This document shows, one piece after another, positions 37,461 through 42,674 of a stretch of 64,000 nt of DNA. This DNA is from Actinomycetota bacterium (GTDB lineage: Bacteria > Actinomycetota > Thermoleophilia > Solirubrobacterales > Solirubrobacteraceae). Location: NCBI GenBank assembly GCA_009699245.1, contig WLOQ01000003.1, positions 124,001-188,000 of the forward strand. Direction: 5' to 3'. Below the pieces are notes generated by a model that worked only from the letters and a program-made list of their open reading frames with translations, did not search any database and was not told the DNA's origin. Position 1 is the first letter of the stretch. The number at the start of each line of letters is the position of its first letter. The translations under genes were made by a program, and so were the position numbers.

Positions 37461-40400
37461 ATGCCAAGCTACGCAGTGCGGGGCACCACACGGTGGCTCC
37501 CCGCAGTTCTACTCACGGCCCTGCTGTTCGCCGGGTTCGCCGTGCTCGGCGTCTCCCGCGCGAGCGCCGCCGACTCCATCGAGTTGTCAGCAACATCGAC
37601 GCCGCTGAGCGGGTCGACCTTCCAAGGCGGCGACGGCAACCAGCGCACCGGGATCCCGTCATCCGTGCGCGACTGGCAGGACGTCACGGGGACGGGCTCC
37701 GGCATGAGGGCCCTCGTCGACGCCAGCAACCCGGACAAGCAGTTCGGCGGCGGCTCGAAGGAGGGAACGCCGGACGAGTGGACCTTTGACACGTCGGGTG
37801 CTGAGGCGACGCCGAGCAAGACGAACTTCAAGGTCGCCTGGAGCCTCTTCGAGGGCGACACGTACCTGCACAGCGCGTTCCGCAGACAGTCGAGCACAGG
37901 CCAGGCGTTCCTCGCCTTCGAGCTCAACCAGGACGTCCGTCAGTGGACCAATGGTGCCGGCGCGCTGATTCCCTGTCGCACGACCGGCGACCTGCTGATC
38001 ACGTACTTCGTCGACAACGCAAACCCGGACAAGATTAGCCTCTACGTCCAGAAGTGGGAGTCGGCGACGACCGTGAGCGCCGCTGAGGCAGCAGCAGGCC
38101 GGACGAACGGCGAGGGCTGCGCCAAGAGCGGCACGCTCGTCAGCGTTTCGGTCGATGCCGCGCTCGCACAGGGTGCAGTGAACACGCCGACGAACAACCT
38201 CGCGGCCGCCGAGATGCAGGCGCTGCGCAATCTTTCGGGTCAGACGACGGCGATCAAGGACCTGATCGACGCAGGCGCGATCGACGATCCGCTCGAAGCC
38301 TCGACGGCAGCGTCGTGCTCCGGCACAGCGGGGTGGATCTGCGCCGGCCTCTTCGGTGAAGGATCGCTCAACCTCCGCGGCCTGTACGCGGGCGCGTTCG
38401 GTGAGGAGGCGTGCTTCAGCTTCGGCTCGATGTGGGCGCACGGGCGCTCCTCGGAGTCGAGCTCTGCGGCGCTCCAGGACTACGTCGCGCCGGTGACGGC
38501 CCGCATCGCGGACTGCGATGCACGCATCCACGTGCGCAAGCGCGTCGGCGACAACGGGCAATACGTCAGCGGCGGTGCCGACTGGCACTTCACGGTGGAC
38601 GGCGTCCCGAGCCCCATCACGGTCGACGGGACCCCGTCGGGCCAGAACATGACCGGGACCGACGGCACCACGGTGTTCAACCTCGGCAACATCCCGAGCT
38701 CGGGCGCAACCGGCACGGTGACGATCGCCGAGACGCAGCAGGCAGGCCATGTCTTCGACAGCGGCTCCTGCAAGCTCAGCACCGAGGCGAACGGTTGGGA
38801 GGACCCGAACGGCACGACCATCGGGTCGTTCTCGAACGGGGTCGCGACCCTCACGGATCTCGCGATCTCCCGAGGCACCGACTGGTGGTGCACCTTCAAC
38901 AACCTCCTGACGCCGGACCTCTCGGTGACCAAGACGGCTGATGATGCGTCGGTGAATGCGGGTGATGGGATCGGGTTTGTGATCACGACGACGAACGCCG
39001 GGCCGGGCACCGCCAGTGGTGTGGCGCTCGGTGATGATCTGCCGGCCGGGGTGACGTGGAATATCGCGTCGCAGTCCGATACCAGTGATCCGTTTGACTG
39101 CGTGATCACCGGTGCGCCCGGCAGTCAGAAGCTGGCGTGTGATTACGGCACGCTCGCGGCCGACGCAACGCGTGCTGTGCATGTGACCGCCACGACGAGC
39201 TTCATCGCGTGCTCGACGTACGACAACACCGCCACCCTCACCGCATCCAACAGCCCCGACCGCGAAGACTCCGCCACGGTCACGTGCCTGGAGCCGGCGA
39301 CCGTGCGGATCGTCAAGGATGTCTCGAATGTCGCTGACGACGACACGCAGTTCGGGTTCACCTCAACCCTGACACCCAACAGCGGTGATCAGAGCACGAC
39401 GTTCAAGCTCGCCGAGACGGACTCGCGGAAGGTCTTCCGGGTCCATCCGGGAGCGAGCTACGTGATCACGGAGGACAATCCGCTCCCGTCGGGCTATCGC
39501 CTGACCGGCGCCTCGTGCTCCGCGACCCAGACCAATCCGAGCCTGAATACGAATGACCCGACCGACCGCAAGGTCACGACGGTCGAACTCGCTCCCGGGG
39601 CGGACGTCACGTGCACGTTCACGAATGAGCGGCTCAGCGGCGGCATCACCGTCGTCAAGAGCCCGGCCACCCAGGATCTGTATCTCGACGGGACGGCGTC
39701 GTACAGCTATCTCGTCACCGCGAGCGGAACGTCCGATCTGAGCGATGTCAGCGTCAGTGACGACCACTGCTCGAACGTGACGCCGACGAGCGTCGCACTC
39801 CTGGAGGCCGGCAGCAGCACGACGTTCACCTGCTCGGTGAGCGCCGCGACCCTGTTCGGGACCGGGACGGATCCGATCACGAACACCGCGACGGCCAATG
39901 GCACGACCCGGGGCGGATCGACCGTGCAGGACACCGACACCGCTCTGACGCGCCTGCTGACGCCCGGCATCGCGATTGCCAAGACCGGACCGGCGACCGC
40001 GACGGCAGGTGCGCTCCTGACCTACACGCTCAACGTGAGCAACACGGGGAACACGTCGTTCCTCGCCGGCCAGGTGCGCGTCACCGATCCGCTGTGCGAG
40101 GCGCCACCGGCGCTCGTCACGACGAACGGCGACACGACGCCCGAGCAGCTCGATCCGAGCGACCGCTGGACGTACACCTGCCAGGCGCAGACCACCGTCG
40201 GCGAGACGCAGGTCGTCAACACCGGCCTCGTCAACGGTACGGATACCGGCGGCAAGGTCGTCACCGCTGATGATCAGGCCACGACGGTGCTCACCGCGCC
40301 GATCATCGTGGTCAGCCCGGAGACCGCTGCGAGCGTTCCCGGTCGTGCACGGCTCGCCGGCACGGTCGGATGCGCCAGCAGCCGGTACGCCTACGCGGCC

Positions 40401-40646
40401 GTGACGGGCCAGCGCATCACGCGGGTGACGTTCTATGTGAACGGTCACAAGGTCAAGACGCTCAGGCATCCGAACTCCGGTTCGCGCTACCTGCTGCGGT
40501 ACCGGACGAAGACGCTGCGCTACGGGACCTACAAGGTCACCGCGCGCGTGGTGTTCGCAACCTCGAGTCTCACTCGAGCCAAAACGCTGCGGCTGCAGTT
40601 CTCCCGCTGTCGTCCTCAGGTGATCGCGCCGCGGTTCACCGGCTGA
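37461..40646 (+). CDS. Large secreted surface protein with DUF11-type repeats
   Basis: A 1061-residue exported protein. A signal peptide ends at SRASA (about 36). The first 350 residues are an unassigned domain with paired cysteines. A SpaA-like segment (HVRKRVGDNGQYVSGGADWH) follows, then several DUF11-like beta domains recognisable by LSVTKTADD, VRIVKDVSN, ITVVKSPAT and IAIAKTGPA, each with NTGN/NAGPG-type cores. The C-terminal 110 residues are rich in Arg/Lys/Tyr, with no LPXTG and no membrane helix, so wall attachment would be non-covalent. Bases 38930-39190 use many T-ending codons unlike the rest. A stable terminator follows. Confidence 0.85.
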   Translation: MPSYAVRGTTRWLPAVLLTALLFAGFAVLGVSRASAADSIELSATSTPLSGSTFQGGDGNQRTGIPSSVRDWQDVTGTGSGMRALVDASNPDKQFGGGSKEGTPDEWTFDTSGAEATPSKTNFKVAWSLFEGDTYLHSAFRRQSSTGQAFLAFELNQDVRQWTNGAGALIPCRTTGDLLITYFVDNANPDKISLYVQKWESATTVSAAEAAAGRTNGEGCAKSGTLVSVSVDAALAQGAVNTPTNNLAAAEMQALRNLSGQTTAIKDLIDAGAIDDPLEASTAASCSGTAGWICAGLFGEGSLNLRGLYAGAFGEEACFSFGSMWAHGRSSESSSAALQDYVAPVTARIADCDARIHVRKRVGDNGQYVSGGADWHFTVDGVPSPITVDGTPSGQNMTGTDGTTVFNLGNIPSSGATGTVTIAETQQAGHVFDSGSCKLSTEANGWEDPNGTTIGSFSNGVATLTDLAISRGTDWWCTFNNLLTPDLSVTKTADDASVNAGDGIGFVITTTNAGPGTASGVALGDDLPAGVTWNIASQSDTSDPFDCVITGAPGSQKLACDYGTLAADATRAVHVTATTSFIACSTYDNTATLTASNSPDREDSATVTCLEPATVRIVKDVSNVADDDTQFGFTSTLTPNSGDQSTTFKLAETDSRKVFRVHPGASYVITEDNPLPSGYRLTGASCSATQTNPSLNTNDPTDRKVTTVELAPGADVTCTFTNERLSGGITVVKSPATQDLYLDGTASYSYLVTASGTSDLSDVSVSDDHCSNVTPTSVALLEAGSSTTFTCSVSAATLFGTGTDPITNTATANGTTRGGSTVQDTDTALTRLLTPGIAIAKTGPATATAGALLTYTLNVSNTGNTSFLAGQVRVTDPLCEAPPALVTTNGDTTPEQLDPSDRWTYTCQAQTTVGETQVVNTGLVNGTDTGGKVVTADDQATTVLTAPIIVVSPETAASVPGRARLAGTVGCASSRYAYAAVTGQRITRVTFYVNGHKVKTLRHPNSGSRYLLRYRTKTLRYGTYKVTARVVFATSSLTRAKTLRLQFSRCRPQVIAPRFTG

Positions 40647-40772: not shown

Positions 40773-41550
40773 ATGATGAAGCCTCGTGCGCGCCACCTTG
40801 CCGTCGGCCTCGCCGCATTCGGGCTCGCCTGCGGGGCCGGCGAGCGGGTGCCGGTGCCGCACTGGCGCAGGATCCCGCCACGGTGACGACGCCGGAAGAG
40901 CAGCCGAAGCTCCCGCTGATCAGGCACCTCTCGGATGAGAACTCCCTGAGCCGGTGGGCGCATCCGGCACGCATGGTCGACATCCGCACGCGCCACTCCT
41001 CAAAGGCGCCGCGCATCGGCACGCTGCGCTTCTTCACCGAGGACGGGTTCCCCGAGATCTACCTCGCACTGACGAGCTACACGGGCATCGATGGCGTCGA
41101 ATGGCTCAAGTCCGCGTTCCAAAACGCCCGAACGGAGCGACGGGCTGGGTCCGGGCCGATGCCCTCGGGACCCTCAATGTGAACCGCTTCCAGCTCGTGG
41201 TGAACCGCACGACGCTGAAGGCGACCCTCTTCCGCAGCCGGAAGCGCATCTGGTCAGCACCCGTCGGCGTCGGTGCGCCGGGAACGATCACTCCCGGTGG
41301 CCGCTTTTACGTGCGCGAGAAGTTTCGCTTTCGCAACACGCCGGTCTATGGGACCCACGCCATCGGCACCTCCGCGTACGCCCCGACGCTCTCGGATTGG
41401 CCGGGGGGAGGCGTGATCGGGATTCACGGCACCAACCAGCCCGGCCTGATCCCTGGTCGGCCCTCGCACGGCTGCATCCGCGTACGCAACGCCGACATCG
41501 CGCGCCTCTGGCGCCTGATCCCGCTCGGTACGCCCATTTACATCCGCTAA
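40773..41550 (+). pseudogene. L,D-transpeptidase (YkuD) precursor with two frameshifts
   Basis: Three frames together spell one exported L,D-transpeptidase. A signal peptide (MMKPRARHLAVGLAAFGLAC) is read from 40773; the product continues one frame back with ALAQDPATVTTPEEQPKLPL (from about 40850) through an SH3-like segment ending GIDGVEWLK; then one frame back again come VRVPKRPNGATGWVRADAL and the YkuD domain. The catalytic HGTNQPG and SHGCIRV motifs are intact. Both shifts are -1, as if one base were missing near 40835-40850 and one near 41105 (AAG|GTC). Either two sequencing errors or a decaying gene. YkuD enzymes make 3-3 peptidoglycan crosslinks. Confidence 0.8.
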
Positions 41551-41572
41551 ACCTCGCCTGCAACGGTTTCTG

Positions 41573-41593
41573 CAGGGGCAGGAGATGCCCCTG
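41573..41593 (+). terminator. Hairpin terminator of the L,D-transpeptidase gene
   Basis: CAGGGGCA (41573-41580) and TGCCCCTG (41586-41593) form a perfect 8-bp stem with a five-base loop, 22 bases after the stop codon and just before the riboswitch. Confidence 0.55.
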
Positions 41594-41605
41594 GTACGTT
41601 GTTCG

Positions 41606-41746
41606 GACGCCGAGTTCCTATGGCCCAGGCCACAGGGAACGGGGGACCCATTGCGACCCGCACGGTCGCGGGGGCGAATCACCGCATCAGCGGTGTAGCG
41701 CGCGCCACAGGCGCTCGCGAGCCCGTCAGCTCACCTCGTAGGCGTC
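41606..41746 (+). promoter_or_regulatory. c-di-AMP riboswitch (ydaO-yuaA type)
   Basis: The 141-base leader shows the conserved blocks of the ydaO family in order: P1 strand GACGCC (41606-41611), AGGGAACGGGGGACCCA, GGGGGCGAATC, and the long 3' signature CCCGTCAGCTCACCTCG followed by the closing P1 strand GGCGTC (41741-41746). In actinobacteria this class sits before genes for cell-wall hydrolases and turns them off when c-di-AMP binds. The next start codon is only 10 bases after P1 and lacks a Shine-Dalgarno, so control could act on transcription or ribosome access. The fold was judged by eye. Confidence 0.88.
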
Positions 41747-41756
41747 AACCCATTTC

Positions 41757-42674
41757 ATGCTCATGAACCGTCATCTCCGCCGCGGCATGCCGCCGCTCGC
41801 CCTCATCCTCGCGGTGCTGGGCACGACCATCGCCGCCTCCAGCGCTCACGCCATGCCGACCGTCAAGCCTGACGACCACGGGGCGGGGGTGCGCGTCGTC
41901 CAGCGGGCGCTCGGCCTTGCGCCTGATGGCCTCTACGGCAAGGGCACCAAGAAGGCGATCCGCCGTTTCCAGCGCCAGCACGAGCTCAAGGCGGACGGCG
42001 TCGTCGGACCCGCCACCTGGAACATGCTGCGCCGCGCCGGTCGCCTCGGCTCGACGATCCACCGGTCGAGTGGGCGTTCGCGTGGGACCGCCGCGCCGCA
42101 GGCGTCGGTCCGCCGCCTCCAGGCAGCACTCGGCATCGACGCCGACGGGGTCTTCGGCCCGGGCACCGAGTCCGCGGTCAAGGAATTCCAGCGCACGCAC
42201 AGCCTGACTCCCGACGGCGTGGTCGGCCCCGCGACCTGGCAGGCACTCGGCCTCGGTGATGGACTGCCGGTGCTCAAGCGCGCCGGAGCCGCGGGCCCGG
42301 CGGGCCCGCCGCAGGAGATCACGTCTGCGATCGCTGCCGCGAATCGCATCGCGCACAAGCCCTACATCTGGGGTGGCGGTCACGGCAGCTTCGAGGCCGC
42401 CGGCTACGATTGCTCCGGCTCGGTCTCCTACGTGCTCCATGCCGCGGGCCTCCTGTCGAAGCCCATGGCCTCAGGGGAGTTCACGGGCTGGGGCAAGTCC
42501 GGTCCCGGGCGCTGGATCACGATCTACGCGAACGGCGGTCACATGTTCATGACCATCCGCACGCCGAACGGCCTCATGCGGTACGACACGTCCGGCATGG
42601 ACGACGGGTCCCGCTGGGACGGCGACCTGCGGCCCGCCTCCGGGTACGTCGTGCGCCATCCTCACGGCTTCTAG
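41757..42674 (+). CDS. Secreted NlpC/P60 peptidoglycan endopeptidase with two PG-binding domains
   Basis: A 305-residue exported hydrolase. A signal peptide ends at SSAHA; two peptidoglycan-binding type 1 repeats follow (VRVVQRALGLAPDGLYGKGT and VRRLQAALGIDADGVFGPGT, each closing with DGVVGPATW). The C-terminal NlpC/P60 domain has the catalytic cysteine in YDCSGSVSYVLHAAG and the histidine in NGGHMFMTI. It would cleave stem peptides in the cell wall. The c-di-AMP riboswitch directly upstream ties its expression to osmotic and turgor signalling. ATGs at 41757 and 41763 are both possible starts. Confidence 0.94.
   Translation: MLMNRHLRRGMPPLALILAVLGTTIAASSAHAMPTVKPDDHGAGVRVVQRALGLAPDGLYGKGTKKAIRRFQRQHELKADGVVGPATWNMLRRAGRLGSTIHRSSGRSRGTAAPQASVRRLQAALGIDADGVFGPGTESAVKEFQRTHSLTPDGVVGPATWQALGLGDGLPVLKRAGAAGPAGPPQEITSAIAAANRIAHKPYIWGGGHGSFEAAGYDCSGSVSYVLHAAGLLSKPMASGEFTGWGKSGPGRWITIYANGGHMFMTIRTPNGLMRYDTSGMDDGSRWDGDLRPASGYVVRHPHGF

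What the first reader, a model, noticed from the sequence alone, without database searches (positions are those of the whole stretch)
41606..41746. c-di-AMP riboswitch in front of a peptidoglycan hydrolase
The leader carries the full set of ydaO-class conserved blocks with matching P1 strands, 10 bases from the start codon of an NlpC/P60 hydrolase. With so short a distance to the ATG and no Shine-Dalgarno, the switching mechanism is not obvious.
Basis: partly seen in the sequence, partly recalled or inferred. Interest (0 to 1): 0.5.

Follow-up and report, generated by a model that had tools for sequence, protein, structure and literature searches.

The report
c-di-AMP riboswitch before a wall hydrolase
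The leader of a cell-wall enzyme gene in an uncultured actinobacterium carries an ordinary riboswitch for the signal molecule cyclic di-AMP, placed so close to the start codon that it most likely works by keeping ribosomes off.

Summary
Rfam's c-di-AMP model RF00379 matches 41598-41759 over its whole length (54.6 bits, cut-off 38, E 6.7e-10). Nine of ten orthologous loci searched in the genus carry it at the cut-off, with covariation. The genome encodes DisA (453 bits, cut-off 201). The gene encodes two peptidoglycan-binding domains and an NlpC/P60-like end below Pfam's cut-off. It is a new member of a known kind: class, target type and a translational mode are published for Corynebacterium (PMC9960051, passages).

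The short spacing is the rule in this order: 148 of 154 framed switches have their start within 30 nt of P1, leaving little room for a terminator. Blocking of the ribosome-binding region is the best explanation, not shown. The missing Shine-Dalgarno is real; 27 of 150 leaders lack one by a simple motif test.

Less ordinary, outside the window: 18 of 154 switch-controlled genes have no ATG/GTG/TTG where their relatives start, but ATC (17) or ATT (1). carD, without a detected switch, shows ATT/ATC behind a Shine-Dalgarno core in 27 of 30 loci across the order.

The parts
41598..41759 (+). c-di-AMP riboswitch aptamer, full RF00379 match (its 3' flank reaches the ATG)
   Evidence: 54.6 bits, gathering score 38, E 6.7e-10, model 1-134 of 134
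41606..41611 (+). P1, 5' strand GACGCC (inner three pairs invariant in ten orthologues, outer three often unpaired)
41615..41638 (+). P2 hairpin (41615-41618 with 41635-41638)
   Evidence: 3 of 4 pairs with changes on both sides
41639..41644 (+). P3, 5' strand ACGGGG (pairs with 41734-41739)
41653..41669 (+). P4 hairpin GCGACC/GGUCGC (41653-41658 with 41664-41669)
   Evidence: 3 of 6 pairs with changes on both sides, 100% of cells paired
41672..41724 (+). P5 GGG/CCC (41672-41674 with 41722-41724) enclosing hairpins P6 (41680-41683 with 41692-41695) and P7 (41698-41700 with 41716-41718)
41734..41739 (+). P3, 3' strand CCUCGU
41741..41746 (+). P1, 3' strand GGCGUC, at positions -16 to -11 from the ATG
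41747..41756 (+). 10-nt linker AACCCAUUUC without Shine-Dalgarno
41757..42674 (+). gene for a 305-aa protein: hydrophobic N-terminal stretch read as a signal peptide (by eye), two PG_binding_1 domains, NlpC/P60-like C-terminal part (sub-threshold); ATG at 41757, second in-frame ATG at 41763

Best explanation
A c-di-AMP (ydaO-class) aptamer forms the leader of a secreted peptidoglycan-hydrolase-like gene. When DisA-made c-di-AMP is bound, P1 closes at -16 to -11 from the ATG, inside the stretch a 30S subunit must cover, and translation is blocked; without ligand the short P1 opens and the gene is translated. So it is a translational OFF switch without a terminator and without a separate anti-Shine-Dalgarno strand; because this copy has no Shine-Dalgarno, the switch would act on access to the start region itself. 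Shown: aptamer, its conservation, the cyclase gene, the geometry. Inferred: ligand binding, OFF direction, translational level.
For: Full RF00379 match. Orthologues: 9 of 10 loci searched match at the gathering score; in a ten-sequence alignment 94.7% of 318 pair cells are standard and 11 of 32 pairs have changes on both sides, 0 of 500 shuffles as high, slid versions at most 4. DisA passes its model; a DisA match occurs in 17 of 17 genomes of the genus. RF00379 occurs in 41 of 41 relatives including the own genome. Spacing: of 154 framed loci 148 have the start at most 30 nt after P1 and the window's 10 nt is among the shortest 14 of 150. P1 is 3 bp in 102 of 154 by a simple count, so it is likely to depend on ligand. 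No terminator-like site in 41450-42000. A leader with a Shine-Dalgarno-like motif is found in 123 of 150. The C. glutamicum nlpC switch changes reporter protein but not transcript (PMC9960051, passages).
Against: No binding or expression data for this RNA. Folding alone prefers another structure for 41598-41840 (-110.3 against -98.5 kcal/mol with the aptamer forced), and forcing the aptamer did not make the ATG less accessible (unpaired 0.33 free, 0.51 forced; -20 to +15: 0.58 against 0.48), so the model rests on geometry, not on predicted accessibility. PMC10117811 (passages) reports premature transcription termination for S. coelicolor rpfA. Outer P1 pairs of the window are unpaired in 7 of 9-10 orthologues. 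The start choice in the 154-locus count is mechanical (first in-frame ATG/GTG/TTG of a frame chosen by G+C at codon position 3); some are surely wrong, and the loci are the better-scoring listed matches, not a random draw.
Confidence: 0.72

Rival explanations
1. Same aptamer, but control is by premature transcription termination or pausing, without a classical terminator.
For: Reported for S. coelicolor rpfA (PMC10117811, passages); PMC9960051 discusses that riboswitch as lacking a canonical terminator and being Rho-independent (passages).
Against: No terminator-like site in 41450-42000 (the scan covers only simple hairpin plus T-run sites); the 10-nt linker cannot hold one; the conserved short spacing across the order is what a ribosome-level switch needs.
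Confidence: 0.15
2. Translational control through a dedicated pairing: a C-rich aptamer strand pairs with the ribosome-binding site in one state (the CTCC/GGAG idea put forward for C. glutamicum).
For: Proposed in PMC9960051 (passages). Aptamers of this order contain a conserved ACCUCG or AACCCCG strand, and most leaders are purine-rich (123 of 150).
Against: The window's linker AACCCAUUUC and those of L099 and L101 hold no purine run for such a strand to pair with.
Confidence: 0.1
3. The window copy is a decayed, no longer switching aptamer.
For: It scores lowest of the four in its genome (54.6 against 70.1-89.2 bits) and has lost the Shine-Dalgarno.
Against: Conserved blocks are intact in the alignment to the model and pairs are kept by compensation among orthologues; orthologues score similarly (42.5-64.9 bits).
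Confidence: 0.03

Closest known systems
ydaO/yuaA c-di-AMP riboswitch class, RF00379
   Same: Whole model matched above the curated threshold; P1 to P7 pairings present.
   Different: The B. subtilis prototype ends transcription at a terminator (PMC9960051, passages); here there is no terminator-like site and only 10 nt to the ATG.
C. glutamicum nlpC (cg2402) riboswitch
   Same: Same class, same kind of target, no canonical terminator, DisA as source; translational OFF by reporter (PMC9960051, passages).
   Different: That gene has a GGAG ribosome-binding site; the window gene has none.
Streptomyces rpfA and other hydrolase leaders
   Same: Same class before secreted wall enzymes (PMC10117811, PMC8079986, passages).
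   Different: Mechanism is disputed there: termination in PMC10117811, blocking of the ribosome-binding site in PMC8079986, which cites Haiser 2009 and Block 2010 (neither read; Block 2010 is not held).
Streptomyces sigR with its GTC start codon
   Same: A regulated actinobacterial gene with a conserved non-canonical start (PMC5472188, abstract and outline); relevant only to the AUC/AUU by-product.
   Different: GTC, repressed by IF3, no riboswitch; here AUC/AUU, and nothing is measured.

Membership tests
c-di-AMP riboswitch, RF00379 | covariance-model match at the gathering score over the whole aptamer | tested here: met
   54.6 bits against 38, model 1-134 of 134
c-di-AMP riboswitch, RF00379 | helices supported by compensatory change among relatives | tested here: met
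   11 of 32 pairs with changes on both sides, 0 of 500 shuffles; P3, P5 and P7 show none because they hardly vary
c-di-AMP riboswitch, RF00379 | a c-di-AMP synthase in the genome | tested here: met
   DAC domain, DisA model 453 bits against 201
c-di-AMP riboswitch, RF00379 | binds c-di-AMP | not testable with these tools
   needs in-line probing or calorimetry
transcription-terminating c-di-AMP riboswitch | intrinsic terminator between aptamer and gene | tested here: not met
   0 terminator-like sites in 41450-42000; 10 nt linker
NlpC/P60 peptidase (PF00877) | match above Pfam's curated cut-off | tested here: not met
   19 bits against 23; YDCSGS and GHMFM segments look like the Cys and His motifs (recalled, by eye)
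peptidoglycan-binding protein (PF01471) | match above Pfam's curated cut-off | tested here: met
   107.4 bits against 23, two stretches

The most novel reading that the evidence does not exclude
In this order (Solirubrobacterales by the title of a relative's record) c-di-AMP switches are built as start-site locks with no separate expression platform, and in some wall-enzyme families the lock sits on an AUC start codon, so that second-messenger control is stacked on near-cognate initiation (and perhaps IF3 control, as for Streptomyces sigR). AUU/AUC initiation would then be a wider, conserved regulatory layer of the order, seen also at carD. The window gene itself starts at AUG.
Probability: 0.45. 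Interest if true: 0.65.

Novelty: new member of a known kind. Interest (0 to 1): 0.3.

Why it matters
As a single element it adds one more c-di-AMP switch before a wall hydrolase in an actinobacterial order with little experimental work known to me. The comparative set gives a cleaner argument than a single leader can that in this order the switch acts at the ribosome, a point on which the papers seen disagree for actinobacteria. If the AUC/AUU starts are real, gene callers that allow only ATG, GTG and TTG would misplace these genes and carD in many genomes, and a testable link between c-di-AMP, start-codon identity and wall enzymes opens.

Tried and rejected
Chance motif: rejected by the E-value and covariation. 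Terminator: none found. Folding to explain switching: not informative and partly against the model. Choosing the reading frame by longest ORF gave wrong frames in G+C-rich loci and was replaced by the G+C position-3 criterion. Helices drawn were wrong (unbalanced) and were redrawn. The list of canonical starts steps out of frame for many rows; replace it. The '26' also counts loci without an ATT/ATC site; one search gives the right figure (23 of 27). The disA control was empty, since no disA locus had a 5-base Shine-Dalgarno core in the stretch looked at, and the internal control had few sites, so neither says much. The attempt to estimate a general rate of non-canonical starts from the window's open frames did not discriminate; the true background rate in these genomes is unknown. 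16S rRNA was not found in the own genome, so the anti-Shine-Dalgarno used is the general bacterial one, typed. I first thought the AUC starts were tied to the riboswitch; carD and a riboswitch-less relative (L273) speak against an exclusive link. Unlisted RF00379 matches (260 in all by its table) were not read: I read 150 of them plus 8 further orthologue loci, 158, of which 154 could be framed (L050, L173, L178, L181 too short).

Full report
1. Observation. cmscan with Rfam 15 gives one match in the whole window at the gathering threshold: RF00379, 41598-41759 (+), 54.6 bits against 38, E 6.7e-10, full length. Sequence and pairings confirm P1 at 41606-41611/41741-41746 and six further helices. 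The ATG at 41757 is 10 nt from P1; a second in-frame ATG lies at 41763. The linker has no Shine-Dalgarno.

2. The gene. The 305-aa product has two PG_binding_1 stretches (107.4 bits) and a C-terminal part with a sub-threshold NlpC/P60 match (19 bits, cut-off 23). NCBIfam models of peptidoglycan hydrolases hit only its binding repeats and far below their cut-offs. Between a YkuD-like gene upstream and the riboswitch lies a gap of about 55 nt. Places show a YkuD-like match a few hundred bases upstream of the same hydrolase on the same strand in G006, G016 and G002 too.

3. The genome. It is G000, 1.95 Mb in 19 contigs, 99.4% complete. A relative's contig (G002:C215, 11006 bases) has the length of the record CAIKSH010000215.1, titled an uncultured Solirubrobacterales bacterium; that is my basis for the order. 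RF00379 occurs four times in the genome. The other three copies precede genes for a PG_binding_1 plus DPBB_1 'lytic transglycolase' protein, a PG_binding_1 plus NlpC-like protein and an NlpC-like protein, the last two again sub-threshold for NLPC_P60 (18.8 and 18.5 bits). DisA is present next to a radA-like frame and passes its NCBIfam model. Two DHH-domain proteins are present; whether one degrades c-di-AMP was not tested.

4. Conservation. Among 17 genomes of the genus all have some match to the window protein, with near-full-length relatives at 58-62% identity in eleven others (L106 is cut by its contig). Of ten such loci scanned, nine match RF00379 at the gathering score, 42.5-64.9 bits; the tenth, L101, has the conserved 3' blocks and a P1-like strand by eye. 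In a ten-sequence alignment 11 of 32 pairs have changes on both sides (0 of 500 shuffles), 94.7% of cells pair, and slid controls give at most 4 such pairs. The outer three P1 pairs of the window are not conserved: two of them are unpaired in 7 orthologues each.

5. Spacing and Shine-Dalgarno. RF00379 occurs in 41 of 41 genomes searched (own plus 40 relatives; 260 matches by the table). I read 158 loci and framed 154. Start codons lie at most 30 nt after the P1 pairing in 148; of the six left, two lie further but within 45 nt and four are beyond that in the chosen frame, of which L034 has an ATG at +12 in another frame. Starts were picked mechanically. A purine-rich motif lies in the linker of 123 of 150; 27 lack it, the window among them, and most of these are from the window's genus. 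In the window's orthologues leaders fall into two kinds: 17-19 nt with GGAAAGAAGA-like or AGAAAGAAG-like sequence and a 3-bp P1 (L097, L098, L102-L105), and about 8-13 nt with little or no such sequence and a P1 of 4-6 bp (window, L096, L099, L100/L162; L101 by eye). This pattern fits P1 itself moving into the place of the ribosome-binding site, which is my inference.

6. Mechanism. The geometry leaves no place for a terminator, and none is detected in 41450-42000. With P1 at -16 to -11 the bound aptamer overlaps the stretch that a 30S subunit covers (footprint recalled). Hence translational OFF by occlusion. Minimum-energy folding does not prove it: the unconstrained fold is better by about 12 kcal/mol, and forcing the aptamer leaves the ATG slightly more open. 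Published work: translational control in C. glutamicum nlpC (PMC9960051, passages); transcription termination in S. coelicolor rpfA (PMC10117811, passages); PMC8079986 states ribosome-site blocking for S. coelicolor, citing Haiser 2009 and Block 2010 (passages). I did not read those two sources.

7. By-product: starts without ATG, GTG or TTG. In 18 of 154 framed loci the frame has a stop inside or just after the aptamer (13 to 66 nt before the end of the P1 3' core) and no canonical start until 51-186 nt after P1, beyond the charged start of what looks like a signal peptide; at 15-24 nt after P1 there is ATC in 17 and ATT in one (L031, where GTC stands at the position homologous to GTG). Three groups: near-identical leaders before PG_binding/NlpC-like genes, GTG in L055, L056, L060, L071 but ATC in L048, L062, L064; a DPBB_1 'lytic transglycolase' family (L174), ATC in 12 of 13 loci read and ATG in L080; and two NlpC-like genes of G035 (L059, L141) with AAAGGAG six bases before ATC (AAAGGAGATCGGT-ATC, AAAGGAGTCGGT-ATC). 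Sixteen of the 18 are among 74 loci of the window's genus, two among 80 others. The sites were chosen by eye. More distant relatives of the second group use GTG or ATG (L275-L277 and L280).

8. Control that changes the reading. In carD, next to disA and not preceded by any RF00379 match among those listed, 27 of 30 loci across the order have ATT (21) or ATC (6) in frame 4-9 nt behind a Shine-Dalgarno core; in 23 of the 27 no canonical in-frame start lies 5' of it within 120 nt, and in 10 of these none lies between there and the domain either. Against it: four loci do have an upstream ATG or GTG, own genome included; 13 of the 23 have a later canonical codon nearer the domain; three loci lack the pattern. 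disA itself has ATG in 17 of 17 loci, and infC shows GTG at a conserved place in 13 of 14 loci printed. So ATT/ATC starts are selective, but not confined to riboswitch genes. IF3 was found in 15 of 17 genomes of the genus; the two misses are incomplete assemblies. Searches for print on this ('AUC start codon'; 'non-AUG start codon'; 'CarD' with 'AUU start codon'; Solirubrobacter terms) showed nothing on it in their listings; the library is partial. sigR's GTC start in Streptomyces is the nearest precedent (PMC5472188, abstract and outline).

9. Verdict. The finding is a well-supported, ordinary member of a known riboswitch class with an unusually short, Shine-Dalgarno-less linker. The most novel lead is the near-cognate starts in relatives, which rest on sequence alone and on metagenome assemblies.

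Noticed in passing
L048, L062, L064, L031; L039, L044, L045, L047, L052, L053, L057, L058, L154, L174, L175, L179; L059, L141: 18 of 154 c-di-AMP-switch genes have no ATG/GTG/TTG before the signal-peptide-like stretch; ATC (17) or ATT (1) sits at the usual start distance.
   Followed up: partly
carD loci L294-L308 and L349-L378 (own genome G000:C17:81654-82139, outside the window): carD appears to start at ATT or ATC behind a Shine-Dalgarno core in 27 of 30 loci across the order; 23 of these have no canonical in-frame start 5' of it within 120 nt.
   Followed up: partly
40883-41550 (+): The YkuD-like gene upstream of the riboswitch is split over two frames (ORFs 40883-41182 and 40954-41550), while its neighbours' copies in G006, G016, G008, G012 and G002 read open over 250-274 codons: pseudogene or assembly error.
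   Followed up: partly
L002, L031, L048, L055, L062, L064 (leader between P1 and start): Leaders AGAGGGGGTTCCCC could fold into a tiny hairpin that hides their own Shine-Dalgarno (by eye).
   Followed up: no
L273 (G002:C195): A relative of the transglycolase family without a detected riboswitch also shows no canonical start near its N-terminus, with ATT and ATC behind GAGG.
   Followed up: partly
L182 (CAMCVN010000010.1): Record titled Bifidobacterium breve has the same length as contig C10 of G012, a genome of the window's genus: probably a mislabelled metagenome bin.
   Followed up: no
37461-40646 (+): 1061-aa secreted-looking protein with DUF11, DUF7507 and SpaA-like prealbumin domains.
   Followed up: no
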